A DNA stretch of 64,000 nt, taken from assembly GCF_020042345.1 (NCBI RefSeq), contig NZ_CP083387.1, positions 3,286,001 through 3,350,000 of the forward strand, in the 5' to 3' direction. Under the pieces are notes generated by a model. It was not told where the DNA came from, did not search any database, and saw only the letters and a list, made by a program, of their open reading frames with translations. Position numbers and translations under genes: made by a program. This DNA comes from Arachidicoccus terrestris (GTDB lineage: Bacteria; Bacteroidota; Bacteroidia; Chitinophagales; Chitinophagaceae). Below, in pieces: positions 3,170 to 19,651 of this stretch; the first letter of the stretch is position 1; every line of letters begins with the position of its first letter.

Positions 3170-3588
3170 ACATAGTCGGTCGATATGGGTAAAAAAATAG
3201 TAACACCCTTGAATGCTATGAGATCACTTAGTGGTAATGACAATTATTTAGAAAATAAGGAGGAAAAGGAAAAGTAAGCAGATAGTCAAGGGAAAGGAAT
3301 GCATTTTATGAGATAGTGTATTTGGTGGCACTTCAATATACCGAAGAGAAACTTACACAATGAGCTTATCAATTTGGTAAATGCTATCCGGACTTTAGGG
3401 ATTTTTGTTAGATTGTGTTGTCAATGCCAATCCCTTTTATACTCTCTATTATTGAATAATCGATATTGCTTGCTTTGCTGTTTTGCACATAAATGACTTG
3501 GCACAGATGTTTTTTGTAAATTTATGAGTCACAGACTTGAAATATGAAGAAGGAAAATGTAACAACTAATCGAATACCTGAGGTGTAG
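3170..3588. other. Intergenic stretch without recognisable gene
   Basis: I see no supported coding frame or RNA. It separates the decayed ATPase from the end of the eight-gene minus-strand operon. A short frame at 3544-3588 (14 codons, plus strand) is too small to call. Confidence 0.5.
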
Positions 3589-4686
3589 CTATTTATTAAA
3601 ATATGCATTAAGAAACGGGACCATTATCTTATCATGTGCAGGGAGGAGTTCCAGAAGCCTGAAAAGAATCCCATTAACGTTTTGCTGCACTGTACCAACC
3701 AGCCTTCGGTCGGGTTCGAGATGATCCAGTCGGCCAAGCAAGGTGAGTGTATGAAAAATTAAGGCTGCAGACAGCCCGTCATACCATTGCTGGTCCGGGA
3801 AACAAAGATGACCAATTTCTTCAAGGTGCTTACGATAGGCCTCGGCCAGGGTTATTGGAAAATGGGGGTCGTTCCATAAGTAGTTACCGTTGTCTAGATT
3901 AACTTCAAATTTTCCCATCATGGGTTTGCAAAGATCAATCAGGCTCAAACCAAAACGGGCGTATTCAAAATCTAGCAAAAACAGGTCATCCCCTTGCTCA
4001 AAGGTTTGACGGGCATTTCCGAGATCATCGTGGATCAAAGCCAGGAAGGGTCCGGGAGTTGTTACAATGGCGCGCACCCGTTCCAGTTCTTGTTCCATCT
4101 CGTTGCTATCGATATTACGGCGTCCAGCCAGCGCCAACAGCATTTTTTGCCCCACCTGAAATCGCTTGAGTTGGGCGGGGCCCCCATAACGCCGCCGGTC
4201 ATCTCCGGGATGGCCAAGTCCTGCTTCTTGACGCATGCCATAATAATGAGTTGCTTGTTCGCGTGTACAAAGATGCAATATGGCCAGAGATCTGGATAGT
4301 CTTTCAATAATGTAATCAAAGCTACGCATGGTGCTATGCCCAGATTCACCTAAGTCATCAAGCAAAAAAATGCCCTGCTGGTCGAAGGCCAGCAGGTTGG
4401 CGCGGAAAGGGGCCGATGGCTGAAGCGACTGCAGGAATCGTTGAGCTAATAGCTCTTCGGCAAATTCGACATGGGTATCTACCAACTGTAGAGCAGGAAA
4501 AGCATCAGCGGCTATATGTTTTATAAATACACTTGGCGGGCCGGATCCGCGTAATACCAGCCGGGCCGTGACGGCTGCCCGGCTGGAAAGTGCAACGACC
4601 TCAGCAATCGACGTCTGATTGCCAAAAGTCTTTCGAATCAGATCTTCCAGGGATAGCTGAAATGCATTTTGAATATTTATTGGCAT
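3589..4686 (-). CDS. Phosphotransferase-fold (APH/choline-kinase-like) protein
   Basis: Last gene of the eight-gene operon; 365 residues from the ATG at 4686 (a TTG two codons upstream is less likely). The fold is indicated by LALIHDDLGNAR (about residue 217), corresponding to the catalytic loop, followed by LFLLDFEYARFG (about 236), corresponding to the metal-binding D-F-D/E segment of aminoglycoside phosphotransferase-like kinases. The catalytic loop is H-D-D-L-G-N rather than H-G-D-x4-N, so the usual Asn is displaced and the substrate is unknown. No signal peptide. It starts 9 bp after the preceding stop, so translation is probably coupled. Its role in the cluster may be phosphorylation of a small molecule or a protein partner. 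An antibiotic-resistance role is not supported. Confidence 0.75.
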   Translation of the reverse strand: MPINIQNAFQLSLEDLIRKTFGNQTSIAEVVALSSRAAVTARLVLRGSGPPSVFIKHIAADAFPALQLVDTHVEFAEELLAQRFLQSLQPSAPFRANLLAFDQQGIFLLDDLGESGHSTMRSFDYIIERLSRSLAILHLCTREQATHYYGMRQEAGLGHPGDDRRRYGGPAQLKRFQVGQKMLLALAGRRNIDSNEMEQELERVRAIVTTPGPFLALIHDDLGNARQTFEQGDDLFLLDFEYARFGLSLIDLCKPMMGKFEVNLDNGNYLWNDPHFPITLAEAYRKHLEEIGHLCFPDQQWYDGLSAALIFHTLTLLGRLDHLEPDRRLVGTVQQNVNGILFRLLELLPAHDKIMVPFLNAYFNK

Positions 4687-4695
4687 GATCAAAGG

Positions 4696-6429
4696 CTATG
4701 AGGGGTTTAACAGCATAATATAACACATCGCATACCAGTCCGGTAAAAGGGCAGTGGTATTGGCATCCGTCTTCAGTTGTGAAAAGTCTACATTCAGTTG
4801 GTGGGTATGTTCTCCCGCATTCTGCAATTTGGAATTTGTTCCTGACCCGGCTACATCAAAACCTGCCCAGTGGCCACAGCTGAAGTTTCGGGCATACCAG
4901 TTGGCAGGTAAACTATGTGTATGGCTTCCTGCGTTGTCGAACTGGGCGGTCACCTTGAATCCGGAGAGCATATGCTGATGAACCGGTAAGGGGTCTGTCT
5001 GGCCAGGTGTTTTGCTCCCCCCTGCTCCCATGATAAAAAGGTCTTTAAGATCCGGAGTCCCGTTATTACCGTCGCAAAGCGCCCAGCCTGCGGGAATGTC
5101 TGTTATGCCACCGCTCCAGGCAACAATACTTCCAACCGGTGTCCAACGCTGTGAGATTGCAGGCCTAAAAGTGATCGCGGAACTGGCTGTCTGGAGATCG
5201 CCTACAATCATATCGATTGCGGTAAGGACAAATGAACTGTTCATGTTGCAGGGAACTGCTACTGCCGCACCGGAAGAAGCGACTTTACCCAAACCTGATA
5301 TTTCTATATAGGTGGCGTCATCGACATCCCAATTGAGTTGGGCTGTTGCAAGGGTATTGTTACCAACAATTATCTGCTGTGGCGTTACAGAAAAAGAACG
5401 GATAGCCATCGGAGGGTATTGCTTGTTGAGAAGGGAAGCAAAATAGCCATCATTATACCCCGGGATATTTCTATATTGTACATATAACAGGGTTGGGCCA
5501 TTGATAAAATCCGTGATGATATTGGTGACATTAAACTGAGCAATCGCCTTTCCCTGAATACCTAGTATAGCATGGTTGGATGGATCGGGCTCCAAAATCC
5601 ATGTAGCGGGGCTGCCCAATGTTTTTTGAGGCGTTTTCCAGCCAGAAGTACCCTTGGCCAGGTCAAAGCCGAAGGCGTTTATTGCATCAGGTGTCGTTAA
5701 AGCATAATATCCCGGCGCGCCTCCCGAAGGAACAAACGAAACGATAAATTGCGGAGGGTTGGTGTCCCATGGCACTTTATCCGGTACAATGGGCGTATTG
5801 CCGCTTTTATTCAGAAACGTTAGCTGTAATGTGTTGACATAGGGAGCTGTACTGTCTTTAGTGATACCAATATCAGGTATTTTTTGATTTTTCCCGTTCG
5901 ACGGATCCGGTGGGTTAGCCACTGCGTTAAAAGACATTGTGAGGGTAAGATCCTTGCCACTGGCCGGCGGTTCGTTGATCAATAGCGTGGTTGATATAAG
6001 CGTTTCGTGTTCGGCCCCCAGATTATACAACTCCGAACTGACATAGACAGTTCCGGTACCAGAGGTCGGATTGATCTTATCCGCGGTAAATTCAATCGTT
6101 TCGCCCTTTTCCCACTGCAAGGTATTTGTTGGAGCTGCCGCCCAGACCGGGTAATCGGGGTCGGGGAAGAAACGGATATCCCAGCCAGTAGCGGTCAGGG
6201 TTATTTTCTTTTGATCGTCAGGATCTTCATATAGCATGGAAAAGTCCAGCAGAAAATCTGCCGGCCCGTCTGCAGGTGGCGGTGGATTTATAGCCTTCCC
6301 TCCATTTAGCGTAATAGATTTGCCGGTATTGTTTATGTACTGTATCGTCAACGTGTTATCCTGCCCGGTATATATTTCTGGGCTCTGGTCGTTGTTCTGA
6401 ATGACGACCTGGATATTTAGTGCACTCAT
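4696..6429 (-). CDS. Tail-collar-like (microcystin-dependent-protein-like) protein, paralogue B
   Basis: 577 residues from ATG 6429; the longer frame to 6474 would overlap the preceding gene by 28 bp and is rejected. No signal peptide. The N-terminal ~390 residues are beta-rich with no family I recognise. Next comes an Ig-like module (ATAQLNWDVDDATYIEISG), and the last ~150 residues form a phage tail-collar/Mdp-like domain (AWSGGITDIPAGWALCDG, TPDLKDLFIMGAGG, repeated HQHM, HTHSLP and HTHQL histidine pairs, LPDWYAMCYIM). It shares this whole architecture with the gene before it and is its tandem duplicate. Such collar domains cap fibres in phages, but no other tail genes are present here. Confidence 0.8.
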   Translation of the reverse strand: MSALNIQVVIQNNDQSPEIYTGQDNTLTIQYINNTGKSITLNGGKAINPPPPADGPADFLLDFSMLYEDPDDQKKITLTATGWDIRFFPDPDYPVWAAAPTNTLQWEKGETIEFTADKINPTSGTGTVYVSSELYNLGAEHETLISTTLLINEPPASGKDLTLTMSFNAVANPPDPSNGKNQKIPDIGITKDSTAPYVNTLQLTFLNKSGNTPIVPDKVPWDTNPPQFIVSFVPSGGAPGYYALTTPDAINAFGFDLAKGTSGWKTPQKTLGSPATWILEPDPSNHAILGIQGKAIAQFNVTNIITDFINGPTLLYVQYRNIPGYNDGYFASLLNKQYPPMAIRSFSVTPQQIIVGNNTLATAQLNWDVDDATYIEISGLGKVASSGAAVAVPCNMNSSFVLTAIDMIVGDLQTASSAITFRPAISQRWTPVGSIVAWSGGITDIPAGWALCDGNNGTPDLKDLFIMGAGGSKTPGQTDPLPVHQHMLSGFKVTAQFDNAGSHTHSLPANWYARNFSCGHWAGFDVAGSGTNSKLQNAGEHTHQLNVDFSQLKTDANTTALLPDWYAMCYIMLLNPS

Positions 6430-6446
6430 GGGATAAATTTTGGAAG

Positions 6447-8141
6447 TTAGACGCCTTGTTTCATAATATAACACAGTGCATACCAGGGAGGCAGTGGGGG
6501 ATTATCATTGTTGTCGCTATTAAAGGAGGGGATTACCACTTTGACCGTATGATTGTGTACGCCGGCCTCTTGTGTGTGCGTGTTATTGGCGTCAAAGTGA
6601 CCATTGGTGTCAATGCCGGTATGAACGCCGCAGCTCAGGTTACGGGCGTACCAATTACTGGGCATCGCATGCGTGTGGTTACCGTCAGAGGTAGATGTAA
6701 ATTCGGTATCTGCTACATTAATGGCATGGGTGTGTGTATTGGCCGAACCACTGGAATTGGGCGTATAATTGTTGCCGGCGCCGACAATAAATTTATCTCG
6801 CAGATCCGGTGTGCCATTGGTGCCGTCACATAAGCTCCAGTTGGCCGGTATAGTCTCCGCTGATCCGCTCCATATCAGGATTGTTCCTTTGGGAATGACG
6901 CGTGAAAGAAGGTCCGGCGTGACAGTAACAGTCACCGCTTTGGACACAGCGCCGGCCAGCGAAGCACTGAATGCAGTCAGTACAAAGGTGGTTGTTTGTT
7001 CAATGTAAACATCCTGGTCGGTGACGGTAGCATCTACGATTCCCAGGCCCGATAACGTAACGTAGGCAGCATTTGTAGTGCTCCAGGAGAGTAATACCTG
7101 GGCCGGGCCGTTAATATTGTTGAGGGTGGTGGCATTGGCTGTAAAAGAGTCAATGGAGAGGCCGGCCCCGGCATTGATCTGATCTTCAGTCGCTTGCCTG
7201 ACGGGTATATTCAATATCTGATAACCGTCTGCCATGCCGGGAATATCCAGATAATAAAGAATACATTGTGTGTCGCGGGCAGATTGCTCCAGGCTCTTAA
7301 TATGTATCAGTTTCAGCAGGACTTCTGCCGGTGAGCCGCCTTTAGCCGACGCATAAGTAATCTTCCAAACAGGGTAATCGGCATTGCCGAATTTTTTAAC
7401 CTTCCAGTTATAGGCTTCACTAATCTCAACCCGCATCAATTGTGCCATTTCAGGAGGCATTAGCGCATTAAAATCCCGTGAATAACCATCACTGAGCTGA
7501 AAATAAAAAGAGGTATTAGACCCGTTTTGGCCCGTTTGTAAAAATCCAATACTGTTGGTGATGGCTAGTTTCATAACACCGGCTCCTTCATCATTTGCCT
7601 GGCCGCTTATATAGACGGAATTGTCATAGCGCCAGGTTGCTGCCATGTCACAGACTTCGCCGTTTTTATCCAGGATAAATAAGGCGGTCGTTGATGTAGC
7701 CGTATATGTCCCCTCAACATTTTCAATGCGCGCCTCCACAAAGCCACAGCCATTTTGACCGGTCGCCTTTACCGCGGGAAACAATAGTACGATCTGATCA
7801 TTGGTAAACCAGTTCCAGTAGGGGGCAGTTTGTTCAAACGTATATATGAGGTTGTCCTCGCTGACTGACAGACTGAAACCAGGCACTCTTCGGGGCGGCT
7901 CTGTAAAGACAAGGTTGCCTACGGTCTTTGTAAAATCGATAATGATCCGTGCCCTTGATGCTGTGCTCTCCGCTTTTTGCGTCTGAAATGAACTCCAGCC
8001 ATTATTAACCAGTTTTATTTTAAGTGACTCGGTTTTATCTATGGTCATAAAGTTCAGTCCTTCGCAATTCTGCACTGAGTTAAAAAAGGAAAGTCGCCTG
8101 GTGGCCGTCTGGGGCCGTTTGTTTTTTTGAGGCTTGTTCAT
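6447..8141 (-). CDS. Tail-collar-like (microcystin-dependent-protein-like) protein, paralogue A
   Basis: 564 residues; the start codon overlaps the stop of the 1207-residue gene (ATGA), a sign of translational coupling. The start is lysine- and arginine-rich and not a signal peptide. It has the same order of parts as its downstream paralogue: a beta-rich N-terminal region, an Ig-like segment (QVLLSWSTTNAAYVTLSG) and a C-terminal collar-like domain (IWSGSAETIPANWSLCDG, TPDLRDKFIVGAG, HTHAI, HTHAMP, NWYARNLSCG, LPPWYALCYIM). The two proteins have diverged strongly outside the collar, suggesting an old duplication with separate roles. They could be fibre or adhesin subunits of an unknown assembly. 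Confidence 0.8.
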   Translation of the reverse strand: MNKPQKNKRPQTATRRLSFFNSVQNCEGLNFMTIDKTESLKIKLVNNGWSSFQTQKAESTASRARIIIDFTKTVGNLVFTEPPRRVPGFSLSVSEDNLIYTFEQTAPYWNWFTNDQIVLLFPAVKATGQNGCGFVEARIENVEGTYTATSTTALFILDKNGEVCDMAATWRYDNSVYISGQANDEGAGVMKLAITNSIGFLQTGQNGSNTSFYFQLSDGYSRDFNALMPPEMAQLMRVEISEAYNWKVKKFGNADYPVWKITYASAKGGSPAEVLLKLIHIKSLEQSARDTQCILYYLDIPGMADGYQILNIPVRQATEDQINAGAGLSIDSFTANATTLNNINGPAQVLLSWSTTNAAYVTLSGLGIVDATVTDQDVYIEQTTTFVLTAFSASLAGAVSKAVTVTVTPDLLSRVIPKGTILIWSGSAETIPANWSLCDGTNGTPDLRDKFIVGAGNNYTPNSSGSANTHTHAINVADTEFTSTSDGNHTHAMPSNWYARNLSCGVHTGIDTNGHFDANNTHTQEAGVHNHTVKVVIPSFNSDNNDNPPLPPWYALCYIMKQGV

Positions 8142-11100
8142 GAGTTTGTATTTTTGTCAAGTTTCAGCCAGCCCTCCGATAGATCGGCGGCGTTTTTAAG
8201 CGTGGCTTGTTGATTAACTGTTTGGATGTCCTCTTCTTCCCATTGATTGTTTTGCAGAGTAACCCAACTCCATGTGCCGTCCCCTTCAGCCGGGGCAGGA
8301 AATACCGCTTCCGGTCCGGTGAATAGAATTGGCGCGCCCAGGAAGGTAAATGAGAGGGCTGAAAGCGCTGCGCTGTATATAGCCGGCGGGATCGTGATGG
8401 ATTTAACGGGGAGTACGCCGGTATAGGCATGTATTTCGCAACGTGGATCGATCAGCAAGGCAAGATTATACAGGGCAGTATCTGCTGGCCTGACAGTCAG
8501 CGTACCCGGTAACGGTGCCTTAATATGTGCTGTCTGCGGTGGGGCTGCCTCAGAATAAAATGTCCTGAAATCATAAAGGCCCTCCCCTGCATTGTCAGAC
8601 TTAAAGTAACCATATAGCCCGTCATTGAGCTCTGTGAGGCTTCCCAGCAAAATCGGAAACTCAATATTTGTAAAGCCGGCTACCGACCGGATTTGTACAT
8701 TGCCCCGCTTCATATCCTCTTTGAGGGCCGCAAAACTCTGGTCTGGTTGGGGGCCACCCATTAGGGTTAGGCCTAGTCCGACCTGTATGAGTGCCATCGG
8801 TGTGCCGATCAATACGGCGGTGGAGACGTTCTGCTGTCCGCTGTTCGGAACAACATAGGTGGTGGTCTCATCCAGTGTGCTGATGAAATTACGTATATAG
8901 GAAGCACCATTGGCATTGGCTCCTTCAATAAACTGACGTAGTATCGGGTTGACATCTTTTATGGTCTTTTCCATGTCCGTGCCGGCTGAGGCGCTGCCGG
9001 GCGCATCCCTCCAGAAAACCATATCGCTGCTTGCGGAGGTAAGCAGCGTGCCTATTGCCGCGCCGGTCGCGTCAAAGAACATCAGGCTGCTGTCGAGGTG
9101 ATTAGGAACCACCCATCCGCAAACGGGGCTGTCGTCTGCATGGCTGGTCATTTCAACATGATGGTCCGCAGCCGACAGAAGACGAAAATTCAGTTGCATC
9201 GGCTGCGATAGGCGGGGAGGCAGGAACATCTCCGGCGGCTCATTGAGACCTTGGCGCCGACTCGGAATGGACTGGCTTACAGCCAGATCGTTTATGTTGA
9301 CCATTTTCCTACGCCCAAAAGAATCAATAATATAGAGCTTGCGCAAGCTGGCGCGGCCCGCTCTCAGCGGGTTATACGAGACGCTGAGTAAAGGTGTCCG
9401 TTGATTTTGGTCTGCCACCGCCGGCGGAAGTGTAATATTGGAAAAGTCATAATATGGCCTGGCAATCGCTGCAGGATCAGCAACCGGCATCTGCATCACC
9501 GGTTCCAGCATGGAGAGTATATCATGGAAGCCACTGAGCGACTGGGAAAGCGTGCGCGTGCTTTTTAAATCATTTAGGATCTTCTGAAGTGCGTCGTCTT
9601 TATAATATTTAAGGTATTCAGAAATCTGGGTACGAAGGTCTGAAACAGCGCCACTGCTGAGTAAGGTGGTACCTTGGTATTGCTGAAGCATACCGTTAAA
9701 GTCGGTATCAGTCGGATAGATATAGTTAAAATCTTCTTTGCTGAATTGTAGCGACGATATCAGTATGTCCGGGGGATAGCTTTTATTGTTGTCATGATCT
9801 AGTTTGACTAATGGCGTAAATTCAATATTCCAGGATATAGATGTGGGGAACCAAGGAACATGCCATTTATTGATCAGGATGTTTCCTTCGGGGGCGGGAC
9901 CATTGAAAGAAATATTGTTTTCGGGAGTTTTGGCAGCGAGCCAGGATGCCTGTGCGGTCCGCAGGTTGGTTTCAGTATCCGTCAGGTTGATGATCGCCGG
10001 GTTTCCCTCTCCTCCCTGTTGTTGTAGCAAAATAGCCAGTGCTATGGCAAAGTCTGTATTAAGCATTTGGAGTGCTTTCCAGCTAGATGCTATCCCAGGG
10101 TACGGAAGTTGACTTACATCGCCAAACGGGGGTATCAGAGCGGCTGACAGGTCCATTGCCTGGCTACCTTGGACAAGATCTTTTGGTAAACTGATGGTGT
10201 TAATCAGGTCTTCTGACAAAACACAGTGGACAGGGGCTGTATAATCCGGAGGGAGTGGCGGTATATCCTGTCCGGCCAGTAAGAGGACAGGGTCCAAAGG
10301 CTGGTAAAATCTTGGCGCGGCCAGTGAGACCAGTGCCATCGAATCGGGCAGCGCCTGCATAATCGCGGTTGCCGATTTATCTATTTTATCCTTGGCGTCA
10401 CTAATTGTAGCCTGCAAGAGGCTTAATGCTGTTATTTCCTCATTAATATAGTTATAAACGTCTGTCAACGACGGCTGCCCTTCCTGGTATTCATGCTGGA
10501 CAATCATAAACTTGCTCCAGTCCGCGAAGCTCTGCTGCTGCTGCCGTTTTAGCTGAAGCTGTTTGTCGTCGGTAGCGGCTTGCAGCTCATTCAGCTCTTG
10601 TAATTGCCTTGCCAAAGCGGGGTCTAATGGAGATGTCGGTTGTCCTTCTCTTGGCTGTATATCCCATAGACCTGCCCCTTGATAAGCCTTGTATTCTGCG
10701 CCAAAGAGCAGTTCCTCAAATACGGCCATGCCGCCCGGCTGCCCAAGGTCTTGCAGGGCGCCCAACTGTATGGCGTTCAATAGCAATTCAATAGGTTCCG
10801 TTTCATCGTTTTGGCGATGCCCGGCTGACTGCTCTTCTGACGTTGTCAGCTCGGCTATCAGCTTGGCGAGTGCTTCCGGAGCGGTATTGCCAATGGTGAT
10901 ATCTACTGCCGCCGGATCGTCTGCGTCCGGGAAATAGCCTTTTTGCAGCCCGGGCTCCCAGTCAACCGACCTGGTACATCCCTGTACCAACAGATAATCC
11001 GGACTTAACTGTCCGTTATGGTCATCAAACAACCATCCGAAACGATTGCCGTTCCCGTGGATTACTTCTTTAGATACAGGGTCTGCAGCCGGGTTTTGAT

Positions 11101-11761
11101 ACCAGCCTGTAACGGTATAGCTAAGCTGGGCCGCACTGGCATCAAAACCGCCATTCAGGCTATTATCATACATGCCGAATACGTTGGCGCAGTTAGGATA
11201 ATAGGCCGCGAAATCTGCAATACCATATCCCATGGCATTCAGATGAGGATAATATACGTCCCCTTTATTGCCGTTTTTCAGCCAATCGTCATAATCATAT
11301 ACCCGTCCCAGATAACGCCAGGTATTGTCACTGTCTCCATCGGGTGTCCATGGAACGGAGGTCTGGCTATACTGGTCTGTGACGGAGATATAATCACTTT
11401 CTATAACCCAGTTTTTATAGCTTACAGAGCCGTCTTCTACCAGAACGATGGTGCGGGTGATTAACCAGCGGTTAGGGGCATCGGGGAGGTCGACCTGCCC
11501 GTTGCTGTCGGTCTTTCCTGTCCGTAAGGCTTTTGGCAGAGACCAGTGTAAATAAATACCTTCTGCCATGGATCGGGATCCGGTAAACGGTGGATTGAGT
11601 ACTGACTGGCTCAGGTAGACATTCCCTGTTTTATCTTTCTTAGTCGGCAGATGGGTAAAATCGGCGTTTGCCGGGAGAAAAATATTGTAATTGACGTCCG
11701 CAGCACTGATCAGCAGGGCTTCTACTCGCATAGGGACAATAAGGCCGGTATTTGTACTCAT
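8138..11761 (-). CDS. Uncharacterised 1207-residue cluster protein
   Basis: I do not recognise a named domain. The N-terminus (VEALLISAADVNYNIFLPAN, then GIYLHWSLPKALRTG and PNRWLITRTIVL) looks like a conserved structural core. A glutamine-rich, probably coiled-coil stretch occupies about residues 385-480 (RQLQELNELQAATDDKQLQL, then RQQQQSFADW). The C-terminal half is beta-rich, with proline- and glycine-rich turns. No signal peptide or membrane segment. It overlaps genes on both sides by 4 bp (ATGA), so its dosage is tied to the 287-residue protein and to the collar proteins. Size and position suggest a scaffold or baseplate-like component, but that is inference. Confidence 0.85.
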   Translation of the reverse strand: MSTNTGLIVPMRVEALLISAADVNYNIFLPANADFTHLPTKKDKTGNVYLSQSVLNPPFTGSRSMAEGIYLHWSLPKALRTGKTDSNGQVDLPDAPNRWLITRTIVLVEDGSVSYKNWVIESDYISVTDQYSQTSVPWTPDGDSDNTWRYLGRVYDYDDWLKNGNKGDVYYPHLNAMGYGIADFAAYYPNCANVFGMYDNSLNGGFDASAAQLSYTVTGWYQNPAADPVSKEVIHGNGNRFGWLFDDHNGQLSPDYLLVQGCTRSVDWEPGLQKGYFPDADDPAAVDITIGNTAPEALAKLIAELTTSEEQSAGHRQNDETEPIELLLNAIQLGALQDLGQPGGMAVFEELLFGAEYKAYQGAGLWDIQPREGQPTSPLDPALARQLQELNELQAATDDKQLQLKRQQQQSFADWSKFMIVQHEYQEGQPSLTDVYNYINEEITALSLLQATISDAKDKIDKSATAIMQALPDSMALVSLAAPRFYQPLDPVLLLAGQDIPPLPPDYTAPVHCVLSEDLINTISLPKDLVQGSQAMDLSAALIPPFGDVSQLPYPGIASSWKALQMLNTDFAIALAILLQQQGGEGNPAIINLTDTETNLRTAQASWLAAKTPENNISFNGPAPEGNILINKWHVPWFPTSISWNIEFTPLVKLDHDNNKSYPPDILISSLQFSKEDFNYIYPTDTDFNGMLQQYQGTTLLSSGAVSDLRTQISEYLKYYKDDALQKILNDLKSTRTLSQSLSGFHDILSMLEPVMQMPVADPAAIARPYYDFSNITLPPAVADQNQRTPLLSVSYNPLRAGRASLRKLYIIDSFGRRKMVNINDLAVSQSIPSRRQGLNEPPEMFLPPRLSQPMQLNFRLLSAADHHVEMTSHADDSPVCGWVVPNHLDSSLMFFDATGAAIGTLLTSASSDMVFWRDAPGSASAGTDMEKTIKDVNPILRQFIEGANANGASYIRNFISTLDETTTYVVPNSGQQNVSTAVLIGTPMALIQVGLGLTLMGGPQPDQSFAALKEDMKRGNVQIRSVAGFTNIEFPILLGSLTELNDGLYGYFKSDNAGEGLYDFRTFYSEAAPPQTAHIKAPLPGTLTVRPADTALYNLALLIDPRCEIHAYTGVLPVKSITIPPAIYSAALSALSFTFLGAPILFTGPEAVFPAPAEGDGTWSWVTLQNNQWEEEDIQTVNQQATLKNAADLSEGWLKLDKNTNS

Positions 11762-12621
11762 ATTTGTGGGTTTGAAATAAGATAGTCAACTTCTTGTACT
11801 CCCTGTATCATTTCCAGGGCAAATTCAGCAGCCGTAAAAGGTGCCGAAGAAGAAATGCCCTGGTTATCGATGAGAAGTTGATGTATGTCGCCTGCAAGCG
11901 CCTGGATATCTATGACCTGATTGTTTGTGGTTGCGTCGCGCATAGGTATCATTGCATGCACATCCTTAATGACGGACCCCGGCTGCTCCCCATTTGGACC
12001 TGCCTGCACATATTTAAGCAGCTTCTGCAGTGGTGTGATTCCCTGTTCAACACCAAAATGGAGTGCTTCGGCAGGCTCACTAAAGCGCACTTTTGTAACC
12101 AGCCGGTCAAACAGGCAAAGCATAATGTCTGTGGACAGCCGTTCCATTCTCAGCAACTTCGCCTCGCCACTATCATCACTTCCCCTTACTTCCAGTTGCG
12201 GCCATCCCGGAACAACCGCTGAACGAAGTAAAAACCCCGTAACCTGCCCGGAAGCTTCTACCGGCTCCCCTTCCTGTTGACCCGAACGCTTGCATGCTGC
12301 TTTCGTAAGGATTTTCTTCCTGAGTCTGTCCAGATATTTTTTATCTCTGACATGGTCACCCGTTACAACACGGCCGATACTAAAGGCTCCATCTATAAGC
12401 GCATCCACCCAGTTTTGATCCAACGAAAAGAAGCGGATCGACTCTGTCGGGAGCATACGTTGATCAGGTACAAGATAATGGAAAGGAACGCCTTTTAATA
12501 GCCGGAGATCTGAGAGCCAGTCGGTTATCTGTACTTCAGTCGGTTGCTCTTCCTGGCCACCCTGCTTAAGAGCCTCTTGTATGCCTGCGCGAAAGCGATT
12601 ATGCTGTGTCCAACGTTTCAT
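11758..12621 (-). CDS. Uncharacterised 287-residue cluster protein
   Basis: Soluble, mixed alpha/beta, no signal peptide. Distinct stretches likely to be conserved are LLKGVPFHYLVPDQRMLP, ESIRFFSLDQNWVDALIDGA followed by FSIGRVVTG, and ALHFGVEQGITPLQKLL. No catalytic pattern was recognised. It lies 12 bp after the 441-residue gene and overlaps the 1207-residue gene by 4 bp. The proline-rich middle and the NWVDALIDGAFS helix could be an interface to the larger partners. Function unknown. Confidence 0.85.
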   Translation of the reverse strand: MKRWTQHNRFRAGIQEALKQGGQEEQPTEVQITDWLSDLRLLKGVPFHYLVPDQRMLPTESIRFFSLDQNWVDALIDGAFSIGRVVTGDHVRDKKYLDRLRKKILTKAACKRSGQQEGEPVEASGQVTGFLLRSAVVPGWPQLEVRGSDDSGEAKLLRMERLSTDIMLCLFDRLVTKVRFSEPAEALHFGVEQGITPLQKLLKYVQAGPNGEQPGSVIKDVHAMIPMRDATTNNQVIDIQALAGDIHQLLIDNQGISSSAPFTAAEFALEMIQGVQEVDYLISNPQI

Positions 12622-12633
12622 AATGAACTGGGT

Positions 12634-13959
12634 TTATTTTTTGTATTTTTCGGTAAATCTGGCAAGCAACGGTTTTACTGCTTCATTGATGAGTTTCTGA
12701 TGAAAGTCACTTTGATGCAACCGCTGCCTACCGCTTGCTAACTGAAATCCGGCGGATAGAAAATCTTGCTCAAATGCGTTGACCGCCGCCTGATCCTGAC
12801 TTTGTTTCCAGTTATATAAGGTGGTGGAGAAGCCCAGGTCATTGAGAGCCAGTAACCGTCCAAGCTGCCAGGCAGCAGAAAGAGATAAGTCTGTAATGCC
12901 ATTTTCAGGATCATAACTGATTAAAGCATCTTGAGAGGGTATCGGGACAGTCATCGTTTGTTCAGTAGTAAAGGGCAAAAACGGACCCCGATACCAGCTA
13001 TAGATATCTCCTCCCTGGCGCGTATGGTAAGGCAGGATAGTGTAGCCTAGTTCGAGCGCTTTTTTTACACTTTCATTGGCGGTCCCGGATGCCATCGCGT
13101 AGGGAATCTGCAAAGTGGCCGGAGTGTGGTTCAGGTCCTCGAAGTATTGCCGGAAGGTAACGGGCTGGGCTACACTTGAGAAAAACCACTGGGTCAGGAC
13201 AACCAGACGAAGCGCTGCTGTTCCCGTTGGAAGTCCGGTGCGGTCCGGAAGATATTCGCCCATATTTTCAAGAGAAACCAGGCAGCAGGTCGTTTTATGG
13301 CCCGCCACTGCCAGGCGGTTTCCGGCGACTACCGCCGATTCGCCCAGAGGCGTGTCGACTCCGTCAGTGACGCGGGCTTGTGTCGCCACTTTGCTTACCA
13401 GTCTTGCACTGCTGAGCCATTGCATCTCGGTACTCAGCGGAGCGATGGCTGTAAATAAGTCTGCCGGAACGTCTATATAACGGCAGGGATCTGTTTCGTG
13501 CTGGCCGTATTCAAGGGTAAATCCCGGGTAGGACAATGTTCCGGAAGGAAGATCCGAAAGATCTTTCAGGCTGCCGGAATGGATCTTAGGCGCAGGATCA
13601 CCTTCATCGAATACGAGCACTGCGAGCCATGGATAGGTCAGGCTATCTTCTTCCGTCTGATTGGCGATACCCAGGTCTCGTTGCCAGGGAAGGGTTTTGG
13701 CGGTTAGTACGACATGTGGCAGAACACTGCCGAATTCGCCTTGTGCCGAAGAAGGCGGAAAAACAGTTTGAACATAATTGGGTGAAAGGCTAAAGCGGAT
13801 ACCCTGGACCGCAAAGCTCAAATGGGTGTCAAACTGCTGATTAAATGGGTGGGGTCCTGTTCCGGCAACCTGCTGAGATACAGATACCAGATAATCACCC
13901 GACTCTAGTGGAGGCTGGTAAAATTCGTAAAACGTAATGTCTTTCTTTTTATCGTTCAT
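12634..13959 (-). CDS. Uncharacterised 441-residue cluster protein
   Basis: No recognised family. Readable landmarks are DITFYEFYQPPLESGDYLVS at the N-terminus, FAVQGIRFSLSPNYVQTVFP, VLPHVVLTAKTLPWQRDLG and YPWLAVLVFDEGDPAP, which look like the core of a beta-rich structural protein; the C-terminal ~130 residues are more helical (AAWQLGRLLALNDLGFST). There is no signal peptide. It starts 28 bp after the 1467-residue gene and precedes the 287-residue gene by 12 bp, firmly inside the operon. Confidence 0.85.
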   Translation of the reverse strand: MNDKKKDITFYEFYQPPLESGDYLVSVSQQVAGTGPHPFNQQFDTHLSFAVQGIRFSLSPNYVQTVFPPSSAQGEFGSVLPHVVLTAKTLPWQRDLGIANQTEEDSLTYPWLAVLVFDEGDPAPKIHSGSLKDLSDLPSGTLSYPGFTLEYGQHETDPCRYIDVPADLFTAIAPLSTEMQWLSSARLVSKVATQARVTDGVDTPLGESAVVAGNRLAVAGHKTTCCLVSLENMGEYLPDRTGLPTGTAALRLVVLTQWFFSSVAQPVTFRQYFEDLNHTPATLQIPYAMASGTANESVKKALELGYTILPYHTRQGGDIYSWYRGPFLPFTTEQTMTVPIPSQDALISYDPENGITDLSLSAAWQLGRLLALNDLGFSTTLYNWKQSQDQAAVNAFEQDFLSAGFQLASGRQRLHQSDFHQKLINEAVKPLLARFTEKYKK

Positions 13960-13987
13960 GATTCTACTTTTAATAATATTTGAACTC

Positions 13988-16900
13988 TCAGCTGAGATGT
14001 TTAGGTTCTCCCAGATAAGCCAGTATGATGGGGCTTAGCAGTTGTAAGGTCTGTGCATCCTGCAGAGGCTGTGTATGCAGGGCACCGGTTACGGAGAAAC
14101 CATTCACATAAAGATCTGTCAGGATATCACTGCGCACCTGTGCGACGGAGTCTTCGGCAATCGTTGCTGAAAATGTGCTGTTGGGATCAAGGCCTCCAAA
14201 AGGATCTTTCACAGGTGCAGTATTAACACCCCGGTCAACGGACACTTTTCCTTCTATTTCTGTTTCCAGCGCCGCGACAAGGATGGGCAATGAATGATCG
14301 GGTGTGATGACCTCCGGTATGATATCAAGTCCCTGCAGGACGTTATCGAGCAGAGCGCTGTTATTAAGAACCGTGTTCAGCTGCTTGTCAAAGATCCACA
14401 TCGCTTTTGGTGCACGGGAGATAAAAGGGGTCACAGTGAAGCCATCATATAGCATACAATCTGTCAGCCGACAGATCGTCACCAGATGTGTGCTGCTTAA
14501 CTCGCCAGCCTCCAGTTGCATAGGGCCAATACCAAAATCGGTCAGCCAGGTATAATCAGTACCGCCGGACGTCCATTTTCCGGTTCCCTCCAAGGTATTA
14601 TAGCTGAGGGTTTTCCCGGCTACCAAGGCCTGCGTGCGTAAACTGAAATGCTGTGGATCCGCGATATAATCTATCGGGACCTTTACAGTTTTAGAGGGAT
14701 TAGCAGGATCAGGATGCACATCGATGGACGCATCCGTACCGGTGAGGTCCTGCAAGACGCCGTTGGTTATAACGGCGCGCACGACTGGTGAGTCCGTTGC
14801 AGAAAGACTGGTCACGCTCTTACTGCAGGGACTGTCTGCCACCGGAAGAGCCGTGCCGGATAGCAAGAATGGGTCCCTTGCCTGCCGGGCAACCGGTCGT
14901 TGCATAAAAGAGCTGGCGACGGACGCCGGTGTCATTGAACCACCTTCCTGGTCAAGAAAGGAATCCCGGAAATCAGGCCAGTCAATACCGGCAGGCTGGC
15001 CGCCTCCTTCCTCATCTCCGATGGTAAAGGAAATAATGTCAAGATCAATGACAGCCCGGTAATGAAAATCCGGTCCCCAGATGTGTAGTTCGGCACCCAC
15101 ACTGACTGACAAAGAAATCCGGACAAAGGCCAGATCGATCGAAGCGTTTACGCTAAAGGACACGCCCAGGCGGATATCATAGCTAAAAGGTTTCCAATAA
15201 ATTAAAAAATCTGCATGTGCAATAAAGCTCGCGCTGATAGCGCCGCTTTTCCAGGTCGCTTCCAGGCGTCCACCAGCCATGACGGCGTGAGGCGTAAGTG
15301 CAAAATACATACCTCCTTTAATGACCAGCTCGGAGGAAACTGCCCAGTTCATGCCCAGCCTGGGTACAGTGGGGTAGTACGAAGGAGCTTTGAAGTATGG
15401 GTTGTAACCGCCAAAAGTAATGACAAAGTCCCCAGCGTGCTCATTTGGCGTAAACCAAAGGCAGAAGGCAAACCCTCCCGTTATCCGGCATGCTTTTGCC
15501 AGTATATAGGAATCCGGTGTCAGCTCGGCATATACGGCCAGAAGACCATCCTGCGGTATAAAAAGTGCTTCCAGTGCAAGCTGTGCGAAAATAACCGGTT
15601 CAGGTTCTTTTGCAGGTACTTGAAGCGTACCGAGTCCTAAGAGGCCGAGTTGGAACCGGGTGCCAAAGGCCACTGACAGCAGTGCGTAAACACTGACCAT
15701 GCCAAAAGAAGAGACGCTGACGCCGGCAGCCAACCAATTTTCTCCGATAGATACATTCAGATATTGCTCCATCACTTTCATAGCCTCAGCAAGCGTCGGG
15801 TGGGTGCCAAATGGATTTCCGCCGGAACCCGCACCCGCAACGAGTGGGAAGCTGGTCACTTTATCTATAGGTGGCAGCAGTAAGTTGCAGTTATAGCCAA
15901 AGCCCGCAGAAAGGCCGTTCACATAAAAGTAAGGAGGACCACCGATCGGGGCGTTGATCATGACAAAGGCGAACAGTGATGCCGGATCCGTGGTCGCATA
16001 GGCGCCAATGGCAGTCAAACCGAAATTACCGAAGCGAACCATCAGCTCGCCGGCAAATTCCATGTAATTCGTATTGGCGGTTTTTAGGAATGCACCATCG
16101 ATGCGCAGGGACGGGCAGCTGTAGCTGATACCAAGTCCACCTATCGCAAAGCCTGGAACATATGGACTTTTTAGCGGAATGGTGACCCCGAGCCCCAGTA
16201 CACTGGCATTGAAAGCGGAAAAGGAGAGTGCAGCATTGAACAGGATTTCCAGTCCGCCGTCAGATAGCCGAAACCCTATCTGTTGTATACTTAAGGGGCC
16301 AAAACTCTGTTGTATATTGATCCAGGTACCTGCTTGTGAGCCGGCGTCGACACCTGGAGCTGAATCCGGGCTTGCCAATAAAGGGTAGCCGGCGTCATAG
16401 GCAGACTGATCATTTGCTGTAACGGCGTTGCCAAAAGAAAGAGTGACGGTTTGTGCTTTTTGGCCTAACGTTAAATAGATGGTCAAGGTGGAATTGCCAC
16501 CGGTATCGATATTGAGCGATATGGACTGCAGCCTGATGCTATCTTTTTCGGAAAGGTATTTGCCAACCAGTGGAAGATCTGTCAAGTTGATAGAGGCGCC
16601 TGCAAAAGATAGGGCGGCATCGACAACTATCCGCTGTTCCTTAACGGCATATTCAATGCTGAGATTGGAAAGGTCCATTTCAGGAAATCCGTCAGGTACC
16701 TTAAATCCAAAATAATCCCCAAGATTGCGTAAGAGTGCTGTCAGGCTGGGTATCTGGCCGGGCGCAGTCCGGCCTGTAAAAGTCCAGCCATTCTGACTAT
16801 CGTAGACTGCCGAAACAGACACTGCAATACCACCCAGCAGAAACTGTCCGGTTACTGATCCCTGTATTGCACCGGTGGTGATGTTAGTGGCGAGGGCCAG

Positions 16901-18391
16901 GCTCATCCCGGTTAGTATCAATCCATTTGCACCTCCTATCAGTTCCCATGTTTCTTTTATATCCGCTGAAAAACTATACACAGAATTTCTGATGTCGCCA
17001 TTCACTTCAAAAGTGGCTCCCGTTATAACCGGCATAGGGATCGAGTCTCCCACCAAATTCCTGACCGGTGCCAGCAGATCGATCTCTTTACCCGGATTGG
17101 CTTGCACATCCAACTTGATCGTAAAAAGCAGACTGGGTAGAGCGATATAAGCGCTCAATACGATATTCTTGTTGGATGCCGGATAAAAGATGGCAGAGGC
17201 GTAGATATTACCCGATGCGACCCACCCGTCGTTTTCATTGGTTGCCTGAAGTGAAAATGCGATCTGGTCAATAACGATGAGATCATTAAAAAGCGACCAT
17301 GGCTTTGCTGTAATCGTAAATGAAAACAGGATATCGGAGAAAGACAGCGGATTGACCATGAGATCCAGGCATGCATATGTTAAAGCCAGATTTTCGAAGG
17401 CCGGGAAGCTGCTGATGGGGTCAACAAGGTAGCTGATATCGGCACCGTTTACAAGGGAATTAAGATCACTTTTAGTGCCTGTAAGCGGGGTAAAATTCTG
17501 TCCCACTTCGACGCGGACGCTCTCATTGTCATCCTGATATAGATACATGGTCGCCGGTATCTCCTTCCAGCCTTTTGCACTGAAAATGGATCGTATAGCC
17601 AGGACAGTAAGGGGGGTGACCGCAAATGCCAGGGGGGTATCCGCGACTATTTCCTGGAAGAGAACGGCCATTTGCATGGTGAAAGAGAATTTGTTTTCAC
17701 CATAGCTATAGGACTTGCCGCCAACTGCCATCTCCAGCAGTAATTCGGGGTAAATCGCCTCTGGCATGTAATTATCGCCTTTAAAATGCCAGAGGGATAT
17801 AGGGCCGCTCATGGCGACGGGTAAATTAATCACAGCGCCGATCAGAGACTGTTGTTCGCCCTTTATATTCACTGTCGCGGCAAAAGACAAACCGCTAACA
17901 AGACTATCCGCCACCGGCTTGATTTCCGGAGGGTAGCCGAAGCTGCTTCTGAAATCTGCCGGAAGCTGCGCCGTAGAATCGGTATCGATGATAATGGAGG
18001 GCATTGCCAGCGTGATGGAGTCCACCAGCGGGCCGGACAGTATGGGGAACATCATGGCCAGTGACCAGGATGGATCCGCGATGGAGATTGACAGTTTTGC
18101 CGAGACAGTATTATCTGCTGTATTGAATATAAATTTACCCTCTGTTAGCTGACCTTTCTCAACGCCGGTCAATACGTTTTTACTGACTTCACCTTTAATG
18201 ATTATTAGTTGCAATTTGTCGTCTGCGCTCATCGACGCCTGACTGATGTTCAATGTACCCGCAGATGCAAAGAAGGCCAATTGCCAGAGTGCAGTGAGTG
18301 TGGGCGTCTCCAGTTTGTCCGCCGGCAAAGAAATCTGCTTTTGGTTGTCTGGCGTCAGGAGCTCTTTTAGTTTGTCAAATGTTAAGGCCAT
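13988..18391 (-). CDS. DUF6603-like giant beta-rich protein (1467 residues)
   Basis: Second gene of the operon, 3 bp after the EEP gene. Almost the whole chain is alternating hydrophobic/polar beta sequence with repeated short motifs, starting MALTFDKLKELLTPDNQKQI and without a signal peptide. The region around residues 740-1150 (GLGISYSCPSLRIDGAFLKT, FGNFGLTAIGAYAT, PPYFYVNGLSAGFGYN, FQLGLLGLGTLQVP, SASFIAHADFLIYWKPF) resembles, from memory, the DUF6603 domain; this needs a profile search. The pattern could form a long beta-groove, beta-solenoid or barrel. The final ~300 residues look less repetitive. It is by far the largest protein here and probably the physical core of the system. Function unknown. 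Confidence 0.8.
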   Translation of the reverse strand: MALTFDKLKELLTPDNQKQISLPADKLETPTLTALWQLAFFASAGTLNISQASMSADDKLQLIIIKGEVSKNVLTGVEKGQLTEGKFIFNTADNTVSAKLSISIADPSWSLAMMFPILSGPLVDSITLAMPSIIIDTDSTAQLPADFRSSFGYPPEIKPVADSLVSGLSFAATVNIKGEQQSLIGAVINLPVAMSGPISLWHFKGDNYMPEAIYPELLLEMAVGGKSYSYGENKFSFTMQMAVLFQEIVADTPLAFAVTPLTVLAIRSIFSAKGWKEIPATMYLYQDDNESVRVEVGQNFTPLTGTKSDLNSLVNGADISYLVDPISSFPAFENLALTYACLDLMVNPLSFSDILFSFTITAKPWSLFNDLIVIDQIAFSLQATNENDGWVASGNIYASAIFYPASNKNIVLSAYIALPSLLFTIKLDVQANPGKEIDLLAPVRNLVGDSIPMPVITGATFEVNGDIRNSVYSFSADIKETWELIGGANGLILTGMSLALATNITTGAIQGSVTGQFLLGGIAVSVSAVYDSQNGWTFTGRTAPGQIPSLTALLRNLGDYFGFKVPDGFPEMDLSNLSIEYAVKEQRIVVDAALSFAGASINLTDLPLVGKYLSEKDSIRLQSISLNIDTGGNSTLTIYLTLGQKAQTVTLSFGNAVTANDQSAYDAGYPLLASPDSAPGVDAGSQAGTWINIQQSFGPLSIQQIGFRLSDGGLEILFNAALSFSAFNASVLGLGVTIPLKSPYVPGFAIGGLGISYSCPSLRIDGAFLKTANTNYMEFAGELMVRFGNFGLTAIGAYATTDPASLFAFVMINAPIGGPPYFYVNGLSAGFGYNCNLLLPPIDKVTSFPLVAGAGSGGNPFGTHPTLAEAMKVMEQYLNVSIGENWLAAGVSVSSFGMVSVYALLSVAFGTRFQLGLLGLGTLQVPAKEPEPVIFAQLALEALFIPQDGLLAVYAELTPDSYILAKACRITGGFAFCLWFTPNEHAGDFVITFGGYNPYFKAPSYYPTVPRLGMNWAVSSELVIKGGMYFALTPHAVMAGGRLEATWKSGAISASFIAHADFLIYWKPFSYDIRLGVSFSVNASIDLAFVRISLSVSVGAELHIWGPDFHYRAVIDLDIISFTIGDEEGGGQPAGIDWPDFRDSFLDQEGGSMTPASVASSFMQRPVARQARDPFLLSGTALPVADSPCSKSVTSLSATDSPVVRAVITNGVLQDLTGTDASIDVHPDPANPSKTVKVPIDYIADPQHFSLRTQALVAGKTLSYNTLEGTGKWTSGGTDYTWLTDFGIGPMQLEAGELSSTHLVTICRLTDCMLYDGFTVTPFISRAPKAMWIFDKQLNTVLNNSALLDNVLQGLDIIPEVITPDHSLPILVAALETEIEGKVSVDRGVNTAPVKDPFGGLDPNSTFSATIAEDSVAQVRSDILTDLYVNGFSVTGALHTQPLQDAQTLQLLSPIILAYLGEPKHLS

Positions 18392-18394
18392 CGT

Positions 18395-19651
18395 TTAAGG
18401 TAGTGTGAGCGTGAAGGAAACAGGTAAATGATCACTTATTATACGGCCGCCGATTAGTGAGCCGGAAAGATTTATAGCAGTACGCCCCAGTAATTGGCTT
18501 GCATAATCCGTTAACGGGAGCTTGTAATCACCGGCCTGAAAGCCCCGCTGGTCAAGTTCAGCATAATGACTTACCGAATCCAAAAGTTTGATTTGGCGAA
18601 TGCGGATCAATTCTGGAATATTTGTCGTCAGTGGACCCGCAAAAGTCACGGCGGCAGGTGCAGGAGGACCTGACCTGAGGAAAAAATTGTCAAAGCCACT
18701 GATCGGCAGTTGTGCTGTGGACTTAAAATCGCGCGGACTAAAAAATTTCGGTGTAACCAGATGTGTGCCATCTTTGATGGCTGGTACTCCACCCAGGTCA
18801 GGGTATGCAACTCCCTCTACGGAGCTGTATCCGGTCCTTTGTGTTGGATCAATGAAATTTACATTAAAATCACCGGTCAGTACATAATTACAGACATTAG
18901 CTGTTGCTGTTGCTCCACCGATCTTATAGCTTATGTTAAGCGGAACTGACGGCGGGCCTGCAAAGAGCGGTTGCGGTGAGACGCCATTTATGGGCGAGAA
19001 ATACCGGAGGGTTTGAAATTGTTGAATGGCCAGATTACTATTTGGTGCAAAATGACAGACAATAACGGGCAGTAATTTGTTTGCTCCGCTGGCAGAAGGA
19101 CACCAGAACATACACAAGGCAGGCTGTCGGGTACCCGGCCAGGTTGGAAGACCAAGCGGCCGGCCAAAGATAGAGACTTTCTGGACATCAGGGTATAATA
19201 GACAGGCTCCTTCAGAGATTTTGATTTTGCCGGCAGCGAAAGTATAGGTGAATTTTCTGAATTCAACATCTGCAAAGGAAGGATAAAATAGGCCGCCGAT
19301 TGTCGACACGTGACCGCCAACGGTTTTATCTATCGGATGAAGCGGTATTGTCTTAGTAGGATCACGGATAAAGAAGGCGTAATATTCCAGGCCGGTATTC
19401 GATGAGAGAATACAGAGCCTGTACTCGCTGACACCATTCTTCAGGCTGAGTGCATACAAAGCTTTAGCAATTGAAGCTGCTACTGCACCGGCCGTTGAAT
19501 TTAAGGTGGTATTTAGTTCAACCAATGCGAATATATCAGGACGGATGGCATAAACCGTTTCTGCAATTCCATCTACGATGTCCTTAAACCCGGATTTGGT
19601 TTTCCCATAATTTTGGATGTTCCAGTTCAATACCTTTACCGTTTGAGCCAT
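18395..19651 (-). CDS. Endonuclease/exonuclease/phosphatase (EEP) fold enzyme
   Basis: First gene of the operon, 418 residues. EEP catalytic motifs are all present: KVLNWNIQNYG near the N-terminus (metal/Asn), DIFALVELNT (catalytic Glu, about residue 43), YVLTGDFNVNF (D-x-N, about 263) and ISDHLPVSFTL (catalytic S-D-H, about 408). It is therefore probably an active Mg-dependent phosphodiesterase: DNase, RNase, phosphoinositide phosphatase or similar. No signal peptide, so cytoplasmic unless exported by another route. Extra loops make it longer than minimal EEP enzymes (~260 residues). It leads the operon, so its level should set that of the system. Confidence 0.85.
   Translation of the reverse strand: MAQTVKVLNWNIQNYGKTKSGFKDIVDGIAETVYAIRPDIFALVELNTTLNSTAGAVAASIAKALYALSLKNGVSEYRLCILSSNTGLEYYAFFIRDPTKTIPLHPIDKTVGGHVSTIGGLFYPSFADVEFRKFTYTFAAGKIKISEGACLLYPDVQKVSIFGRPLGLPTWPGTRQPALCMFWCPSASGANKLLPVIVCHFAPNSNLAIQQFQTLRYFSPINGVSPQPLFAGPPSVPLNISYKIGGATATANVCNYVLTGDFNVNFIDPTQRTGYSSVEGVAYPDLGGVPAIKDGTHLVTPKFFSPRDFKSTAQLPISGFDNFFLRSGPPAPAAVTFAGPLTTNIPELIRIRQIKLLDSVSHYAELDQRGFQAGDYKLPLTDYASQLLGRTAINLSGSLIGGRIISDHLPVSFTLTLP

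What the first reader, a model, noticed from the sequence alone, without database searches (positions are those of the whole stretch)
3589..19651. Eight-gene, 16-kb operon with no described function
Seen in the sequence: eight minus-strand genes with gaps of 3-28 bp or 4-bp ATGA overlaps, no internal terminator, no signal peptides, and sizes from 287 to 1467 residues. The content is coherent: two enzymes at the ends (EEP-fold and phosphotransferase-fold), two collar-domain proteins, and four large proteins, one DUF6603-like and three with no family I know. Established knowledge: collar/Mdp domains sit at fibre tips, EEP enzymes cut phosphodiesters. Inference: an intracellular multiprotein assembly, possibly conflict-, adhesion- or lipid-related. 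A contractile injection system is not supported, because sheath, tube, spike and ATPase genes are absent.
Basis: partly seen in the sequence, partly recalled or inferred. Interest (0 to 1): 0.88.

Follow-up and report, generated by a model that had tools for sequence, protein, structure and literature searches.

The report
Undescribed DUF6603 gene system across phyla
A cluster of eight bacterial genes turns out to be built around a four-gene set that recurs as a unit in many bacterial phyla, with exchangeable enzymes and exchangeable fibre-tip-like proteins attached; its function is unknown.

Summary
The eight minus-strand ORFs exist at the stated coordinates. The conserved unit is smaller: four genes, b (DUF6603), c, d and e. 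In 80 loci fetched through c, c and d are in 80, b in 71, e in 68 and all four in 63, from 13 named phyla. The four co-evolve (distance correlations 0.78-0.92; shuffled maximum 0.13), while the c tree follows phylum labels only partly, which fits transfer as a block. Around the core, parts are swapped. One is a hydrolase: ComEC-like MBL, EEP or class-3 lipase, never two of these kinds in one locus (36 of 84 have one). The other is an Ig-like protein whose C-terminus may be a phage collar, lectin, kelch/propeller or endosialidase-chaperone domain. The core mostly lacks signal peptides, was not found in phages or viral contigs, and a confidently predicted c+d structure has no significant match in the PDB or viral library. 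Most likely (inferred, 0.4): a non-contractile protein device assembled in the cytosol that pairs an enzyme payload with a targeting tip. No function was tested. No paper in the searched library contains DUF6603 or PF20248.

The parts
18395..19651 (-). a: EEP-fold (DNase I-like) hydrolase, first gene; exchangeable accessory
   Evidence: Pfam Exo_endo_phos 0.0016; N11, E45, H200, D261, N263, D321, S406-D407-H408 each conserved in 11 or 12 of 12 aligned EEPs
13988..18391 (-). b: DUF6603 core protein, 1467 aa; predicted as a long run of beta strands; DUF6603 domain at residues 693-1157
   Evidence: PF20248 1.3e-130; AlphaFold2 of residues 268-1467, pLDDT 74 overall and mostly above 85 over model residues 420-870, that is protein residues 687-1137
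12634..13959 (-). c: core protein, 441 aa, no known family; fused to d in many relatives
   Evidence: present in 80 of 80 loci, being the bait; a fused c+d relative is predicted with pLDDT 87.7 and has no PDB or viral fold match at E<=0.001
11758..12621 (-). d: core protein, 287 aa, no known family
   Evidence: 80 of 80 loci
8138..11761 (-). e: core protein, 1207 aa, no known family
   Evidence: 68 of 80 loci; no convincing solved relative by profile (best E 0.14)
6447..8141 (-). f: protein with C-terminal phage tail-collar domain, Ig-like region before it
   Evidence: phrog_5795 1.9e-20, phrog_1800 9.5e-20
4696..6474 (-). g: paralogue of f with C-terminal collar domain
   Evidence: phrog_5795 1.8e-14; 37% identical to f over 274 aligned positions
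3589..4692 (-). h: phosphotransferase-like protein with an altered HxDL motif (HDDLGNAR), accessory
   Evidence: CotS 0.001, choline kinase 0.17; the window protein and 3 of 3 relatives carry R where recalled kinases have N

Best explanation
Shown: b, c, d and e are a conserved, co-evolving four-gene core, patchily spread over phyla, with an exchangeable hydrolase (usually next to the start of b) and exchangeable Ig-like/tip proteins. Inferred: the core assembles in the cytosol into a large, beta-rich, non-contractile protein complex. The Ig-like protein with its collar, lectin or propeller C-terminus is the targeting or adhesion tip. The hydrolase (here an EEP-type phosphodiesterase) is the payload. 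The DUF6603 protein, a run of amphipathic strands, contacts or crosses a lipid surface. The complex would leave the cell by lysis or another non-Sec route, bind a target through its tip, and present or deliver the enzyme.
For: Core unit: all four genes in the fetched stretch (match +- 10 kb) in 63 of 80 loci; core-core gaps median 4 bases, 142 of 159 at most 50 bases; distance correlations among b, c, d, e 0.78-0.92 against a shuffled maximum of 0.13; on one draw of 395 Bacteroidota genomes all 10 with a c match are among the 17 with DUF6603 (hypergeometric 8.6e-16). Exchangeable hydrolase: MBL in 17, EEP in 12, lipase in 7 of 84 loci, never two of these kinds together, 26 of the 36 within 110 bases of the start of b; active-site residues kept in EEP and MBL; patatin, lipase_3 and subtilase elsewhere; 7 changes of hydrolase kind on the c tree where 2 is the least possible. 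Exchangeable tip: among 59 g-like proteins collar 14, kelch 8, LamG 6, Fib_succ_major 6, YNCE propeller 5, Gp10_C 4, Peptidase_S74 3. Few signal peptides by a hydropathy proxy: c, d and fused cd 0 of 116, b 2 of 67, e 5 of 56, against 53 of 247 genes outside the operons. Beta strands; amphipathicity 2.47 against 1.14 shuffled.
Against: No particle, secretion or target has been observed. Hydrolase kinds are also clustered on the tree (7 changes; shuffled mean 15.5). In 48 of 84 loci no EEP, MBL or lipase was detected, some of them with full flanks (of 57 loci with b and at least 1500 bases before it, 31 have none). Some accessories (AMP-ligase/ketosynthase, glycosyltransferase, phosphotransferase) do not look like payloads. 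Amphipathic strands are normal in beta sheets, and the Foldseek rows shown for b have TM at most 0.29. c+d resembles no phage or virus structure. The EEP, MBL and lipase profiles were built largely from the loci that they then counted, and the hydropathy proxy also flags 8 of 67 b proteins for an internal hydrophobic stretch.
Confidence: 0.4

Rival explanations
1. Intracellular conflict (anti-phage or abortive) system: the b-c-d-e complex senses an intruder, perhaps through the collar-type protein, and unleashes the interchangeable hydrolase on nucleic acid or membrane.
For: Interchangeable nuclease-type and lipase-type enzymes, the EEP and MBL with intact active sites, look like effector slots; few signal peptides; patchy distribution, 7 of 147 family genomes with e including the window's; GC 48-51% against 43-45% in the flanks; not found in the 5-13 kb read after the guaA/tRNA-Met junction in 5 of 5 congeners.
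Against: No PADLOC match for any of the 8 proteins; no ATPase, sensor or nucleotide-signalling domain found in them; LamG, kelch, S74 and Fib_succ_major tips are unusual for intracellular sensing; very large beta proteins are unlike known effectors.
Confidence: 0.2
2. Lipid- or envelope-related assembly: DUF6603 is a lipid-binding amphipathic beta sheet (ApoB- or LptD-like in working) and the hydrolases and acyl-activating enzymes process the lipid or surface polymer.
For: Best Foldseek hits of b are ApoB100, an S-layer/outer-membrane deinoxanthin-binding barrel, LptD and ushers; AMP-ligase/ketosynthase in one sub-lineage, lipase_3 and patatin, glycosyltransferase.
Against: Rows shown have TM at most 0.29 and probably reflect long beta meanders; EEP and ComEC-like MBL are not lipid enzymes by default; no signal-like N-terminus on b in 65 of 67; phage-type tips unexplained.
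Confidence: 0.2
3. The core is cargo or an adaptor of a spike (VgrG/gpV plus PAAR) of a type VI or extracellular contractile system.
For: L145: VgrG-like OB (1.8e-19) and PAAR (4.6e-23) just before the core, one 279-aa gene between; a Paenibacillus plasmid has baseplate-V and DUF4280 genes about 9 kb before DUF6603; PF04717 in 10 of 17 DUF6603 genomes against 88 of 378 others (Fisher 0.002), and in 6 of 10 genomes with a c match against 92 of 385 (0.018); in 14 of 15 other carrier genomes that I chose.
Against: The window's own genome has no PF04717 match; its one sheath gene lies in a prophage about 2.2 Mb away. A spike OB profile found such genes in 1 of 80 genome loci and 1 of 4 plasmid loci. 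Genome size and lifestyle were not controlled, and the 15 genomes were hand-picked.
Confidence: 0.12

Closest known systems
Extracellular contractile injection systems, tailocins, type VI secretion
   Same: Fibre-tip domains (collar, S74, Gp10_C), exchangeable enzymes, few signal peptides; one relative has VgrG-like and PAAR genes beside the core
   Different: No sheath, tube or baseplate gene among the 8; c+d has no significant viral or PDB fold match; own genome has no PF04717 match
DUF6603 family (PF20248)
   Same: b is a strong member (436.8 bits, cut-off 27)
   Different: The Pfam entry is a family of unknown function; the fixed partners c, d and e have no family in the libraries searched
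Modular anti-phage or conflict systems with exchangeable effectors (recalled, e.g. Lamassu, CBASS)
   Same: Constant core with interchangeable hydrolases
   Different: No PADLOC hit, no ATPase or sensor module found
ApoB100 / LptD type lipid-contacting beta sheets
   Same: Long run of amphipathic strands; best Foldseek rows
   Different: TM at most 0.29 in the rows shown, 6-12% identity, no signal-like N-terminus

Membership tests
DUF6603 (PF20248) | profile match over the curated cut-off | tested here: met
   436.8 bits against 27
Contractile injection system or tailocin | sheath gene in the locus | tested here: not met
   no Pfam or PHROG sheath match in the 8 proteins; the genome's one PF04984 hit lies in a prophage with terminase, portal, capsid and tube genes
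Contractile injection system or tailocin | VgrG/gpV spike | tested here: not met
   no PF04717 match in the window's genome; near the core in L145 of 80 genome loci and L081 of 4 plasmid loci. The prophage has a weak GpV apex motif
Prophage or phage remnant | homologues of the core in phages or viral contigs | tested here: not met
   none in 50,697 phage records (c only) or in IMG/VR (c and e); b and d not searched there
Known anti-phage system | PADLOC model match | tested here: not met
   none for 8 of 8 proteins at E<=0.1
EEP hydrolase (gene a) | catalytic Asn, Glu, His, Asp-x-Asn and Ser-Asp-His (recalled set) | tested here: met
   all present in the window protein; each conserved in 11 or 12 of 12
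Phosphotransferase/APH-like kinase (gene h) | Asn in the HxDLxxxN loop (recalled) | tested here: not met
   R at that place in the window protein and 3 of 3 relatives; profile support weak
Phage tail-collar proteins (genes f, g) | collar profile match | tested here: met
   phrog_5795 and phrog_1800; Pfam Collar below its cut-off
Secreted by Sec | N-terminal signal peptide | tested here: not met
   hydropathy proxy only, 0 of 8

The most novel reading that the evidence does not exclude
A new class of non-contractile, cytosol-assembled payload-delivery particle, found in 13 named bacterial phyla, built from DUF6603 and protein folds not yet in the PDB, with interchangeable enzyme payloads and interchangeable phage-, lectin- or propeller-type targeting tips.
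Probability: 0.3. Interest if true: 0.92.

Novelty: categorically new. Interest (0 to 1): 0.76.

Why it matters
A four-gene core kept together in loci from 13 named phyla, with no family beyond a DUF and no function, is a gap in the list of bacterial machines. The swapped hydrolases and tips make its function directly testable: remove one core gene and look for a lost particle, a lost competitive effect or a lost immunity. If it delivers enzymes, it would be a delivery machine that, apart from its tips, shows no likeness to phage tails. The label 'categorically new' rests on the make-up of the system; its mechanism is unproven.

Tried and rejected
Contractile system or prophage: rejected for this locus. 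Known defence system: no PADLOC match. Bacteroidota promoter consensus (recalled): 5 matches in the window against 2.8 expected, none just before the operon. The e protein against the 1.5-1.9 kaa protein of the type II arrangement: hhalign E 0.015, probability 3%, not accepted as homology. Solved relatives of c, d and e by profile: none for c and d, best E 0.14 for e. Structure of b: Foldseek hits too weak to name a fold. Empty site: guaA-tRNA-Met is conserved in 5 of 5 congeners and no gene of the operon was found in the 5-13 kb read beyond it, but the right boundary could not be set. Two first statements of mine were mended on checking: one of the 10 genomes with a c match (G253) proved to carry the type II arrangement, and the first search for spike genes was too weak, since it missed L145 in the full set; one search repeats it with a better profile. 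Structure of e: not predicted, both jobs went to b and c+d. Literature: DUF6603 and PF20248 each in 0 papers of the held PMC library; three broader searches gave 0, 1 and 0 papers; only search listings were seen, no paper was read.

Full report
Observation. The window lies at 3,286,001-3,350,000 of a 4.9-Mb single-contig genome. The eight ORFs are real and at the stated places. Junctions, computed from those coordinates, are gaps of 3 to 28 bases, two 4-base overlaps and one 28-base overlap that depends on the start codon chosen. Letters used below: a 18395-19651, b 13988-18391, c 12634-13959, d 11758-12621, e 8138-11761, f 6447-8141, g 4696-6474, h 3589-4692, all minus strand.

Families. Only b has a strong Pfam match (PF20248, DUF6603, 1.3e-130). 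a is EEP (0.0016), h weakly kinase-like (0.17; CotS 0.001 in NCBIfam), f and g have collar domains (Pfam 0.027 and 0.0022; PHROG tail proteins 1.9e-20 and 1.8e-14); c and d match nothing and e nothing below 0.05; PADLOC has no match for any. The EEP catalytic positions are present in a. In h the recalled catalytic Asn of the HxDLxxxN loop is Arg, as in three of three relatives.

The conserved unit is b-c-d-e. Searching 147 genomes of the family with e found 7 carriers including the window's own; in the 6 others b, c, d and e sit together while the remaining genes differ. A scan of one genome per species (84,980) with a c profile found 193 relatives, of which the best 80 were kept. In these 80, c and d are in 80, b in 71, e in 68, all four in 63; 13 of the 17 exceptions are on fetched stretches shorter than 20 kb. 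Order is b-c-d-e in 34, e-b-(cd) in 17, b-(cd)-e in 10 and two further orders once each; c and d are one fused protein in 28 of the 63. Core-core gaps have a median of 4 bases and 142 of 159 are at most 50 bases. Relatives of c also lie on Streptomyces, Embleya and Paenibacillus plasmids (8 of 72,556 records).

They behave as a unit. Pairwise distances of b, c, d and e correlate at 0.78-0.92, against a maximum of 0.13 after shuffling taxa. On one draw of 395 Bacteroidota genomes DUF6603 is in 17 and a c match in 10, all 10 among the 17 (hypergeometric 8.6e-16). Nine of the 10 have the b-c-d-e set (and the window). The tenth, G253, has a sister arrangement (type II), as do 6 of the other 7: a DUF6603 protein, a protein of 0.97-1.16 kaa whose N-terminal part is related to c (hhalign E 1.7e-9, probability 96%; in G253 the c profile itself finds it at 1.4e-5), and a protein of 1.5-2.2 kaa. 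The last, G250, is only a weak DUF6603 hit (6.5e-4). The c tree has 79 rows from 13 named phyla (4 rows unassigned, the window among them); two loci (L156, L159) and the plasmid loci were left out. Bacteroidota and Cyanobacteriota cluster but are not single clades, Pseudomonadota is no more clustered than shuffled labels, and Myxococcota (2 rows) is one clade. With the higher GC of the operon (48-51% against 43-45%) and no trace of it in the 5-13 kb read beyond the conserved guaA-tRNA-Met junction in 5 of 5 congeners, this fits transfer as a block; paralogy and loss are not excluded.

Exchangeable enzyme. Profiles made largely from the loci themselves found an MBL (ComEC-like) in 17, an EEP in 12 and a class-3 lipase in 7 of 84 loci (80 plus 4 plasmid loci), never two kinds together; 48 have none of the three. 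Of the 36, 26 lie within 110 bases of the start of b; five EEPs stand 1.3-1.9 kb before it with small genes between. Of 57 loci with b and at least 1500 bases before it, 26 have one. The MBL keeps HxxxDH and a further Asp and His in 15 of 15 aligned; the EEP keeps each catalytic residue in 11 or 12 of 12. Other loci have patatin (L117, 3.6e-6), lipase_3 (G006) or, in type II, subtilase in 3 of 5 tested genomes. On the c tree the three kinds need 7 changes where 2 would be the minimum; shuffled labels average 15.5, so kinds are also inherited.

Exchangeable tip. A protein of the f/g cluster is in the operon in 50 of 80 loci. Of 59 such proteins scanned (57 from the loci, 2 from the window; one plasmid row and four short ones were left out), 14 match collar, 8 kelch, 6 LamG, 6 Fib_succ_major, 5 YNCE propeller, 4 Gp10_C and 3 Peptidase_S74 at E<=0.01.

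Location. By a simple hydropathy proxy c, d and fused cd have N-terminal hydrophobic stretches in 0 of 116, b in 2 of 67 and e in 5 of 56, against 53 of 247 genes outside the operons (plasmid loci and proteins under 150 aa left out). No core relative was found in 50,697 phage records (c only) or in IMG/VR viral contigs (c and e).

Structure. b residues 268-1467: pLDDT 74, high over model residues about 420-870, where 27 strands of three or more residues follow one another; that they form an antiparallel meander is my reading of that order. Strands are amphipathic (2.47 against 1.14 shuffled), which holds for many sheets. Foldseek gives ApoB100, a deinoxanthin-binding barrel, LptD and ushers with E down to 1.5e-6 but TM at most 0.29 in the 50 rows shown: a lead, not an assignment. 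A naturally fused c+d (L093, Caulobacter sp. Root1455) is predicted with pLDDT 87.7 and pTM 0.79, yet has no match at E<=0.001 in the PDB or in the viral library (best 0.16 and 0.0053).

Link to contractile systems. In L145 (Flavipsychrobacter MAG) a VgrG-like OB protein and a PAAR protein stand just before the core, with one 279-aa gene between. A spike OB profile found such genes in that one of 80 genome loci and in one of 4 plasmid loci (L081). PF04717 is commoner in DUF6603 genomes (10 of 17 against 88 of 378, Fisher 0.002; with a c match 6 of 10 against 92 of 385, 0.018), and in 14 of 15 other carriers that I picked. The window's own genome has no PF04717 match, and its single sheath gene belongs to a prophage about 2.2 Mb away with terminase, portal, capsid and tail-tube genes. 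So a spike of this family is not needed here; an association elsewhere is possible.

Interpretation. Shown: a conserved, co-evolving four-gene core with exchangeable hydrolases and tips, mostly without signal peptides and of no kind known to the libraries searched. Inferred: a cytosol-assembled, non-contractile device that pairs enzyme with tip (0.4). Rivals: intracellular conflict system (0.2), lipid or envelope assembly (0.2), spike cargo (0.12). No paper of the held PMC library contains DUF6603 or PF20248; most subscription literature and all preprints were not searchable, so 'undescribed' is limited to that.

Noticed in passing
window 2431-3180: Short minus-strand ORFs that look like remains of a broken gene between tRNA-Met and the operon; congener G116 matches the window on to 3186.
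   Followed up: partly
window 19884-21857 (-): A separate gene with an N-terminal signal-like stretch, metallophosphatase plus PQQ beta-propeller, 232 bases before the EEP gene.
   Followed up: partly
G000:C1 about 1106000-1134000 (L199, L200): A prophage with terminase, portal, capsid, sheath, tube and tail genes; no profile of genes a-e, g or h matched there.
   Followed up: partly
L145:1-1973: VgrG-like and PAAR genes just before the DUF6603 core in a Flavipsychrobacter MAG.
   Followed up: partly
L058, L060, L062, L064, L068, L072, L070: A sister arrangement (type II): DUF6603 with two giant proteins, one with a c-related part, in 7 genomes; a subtilase beside it in 3 of 5 tested.
   Followed up: partly
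L142, L161, L162, L152, L157: A sub-lineage with DUF6603 proteins of about 3,200 aa, a class-3 lipase and an AMP-ligase/ketosynthase cluster.
   Followed up: no
L027/L028 (G006): Glycine-rich collagen-like proteins and a very large gene that begins like an acyl ligase, read by eye, beside the core.
   Followed up: no
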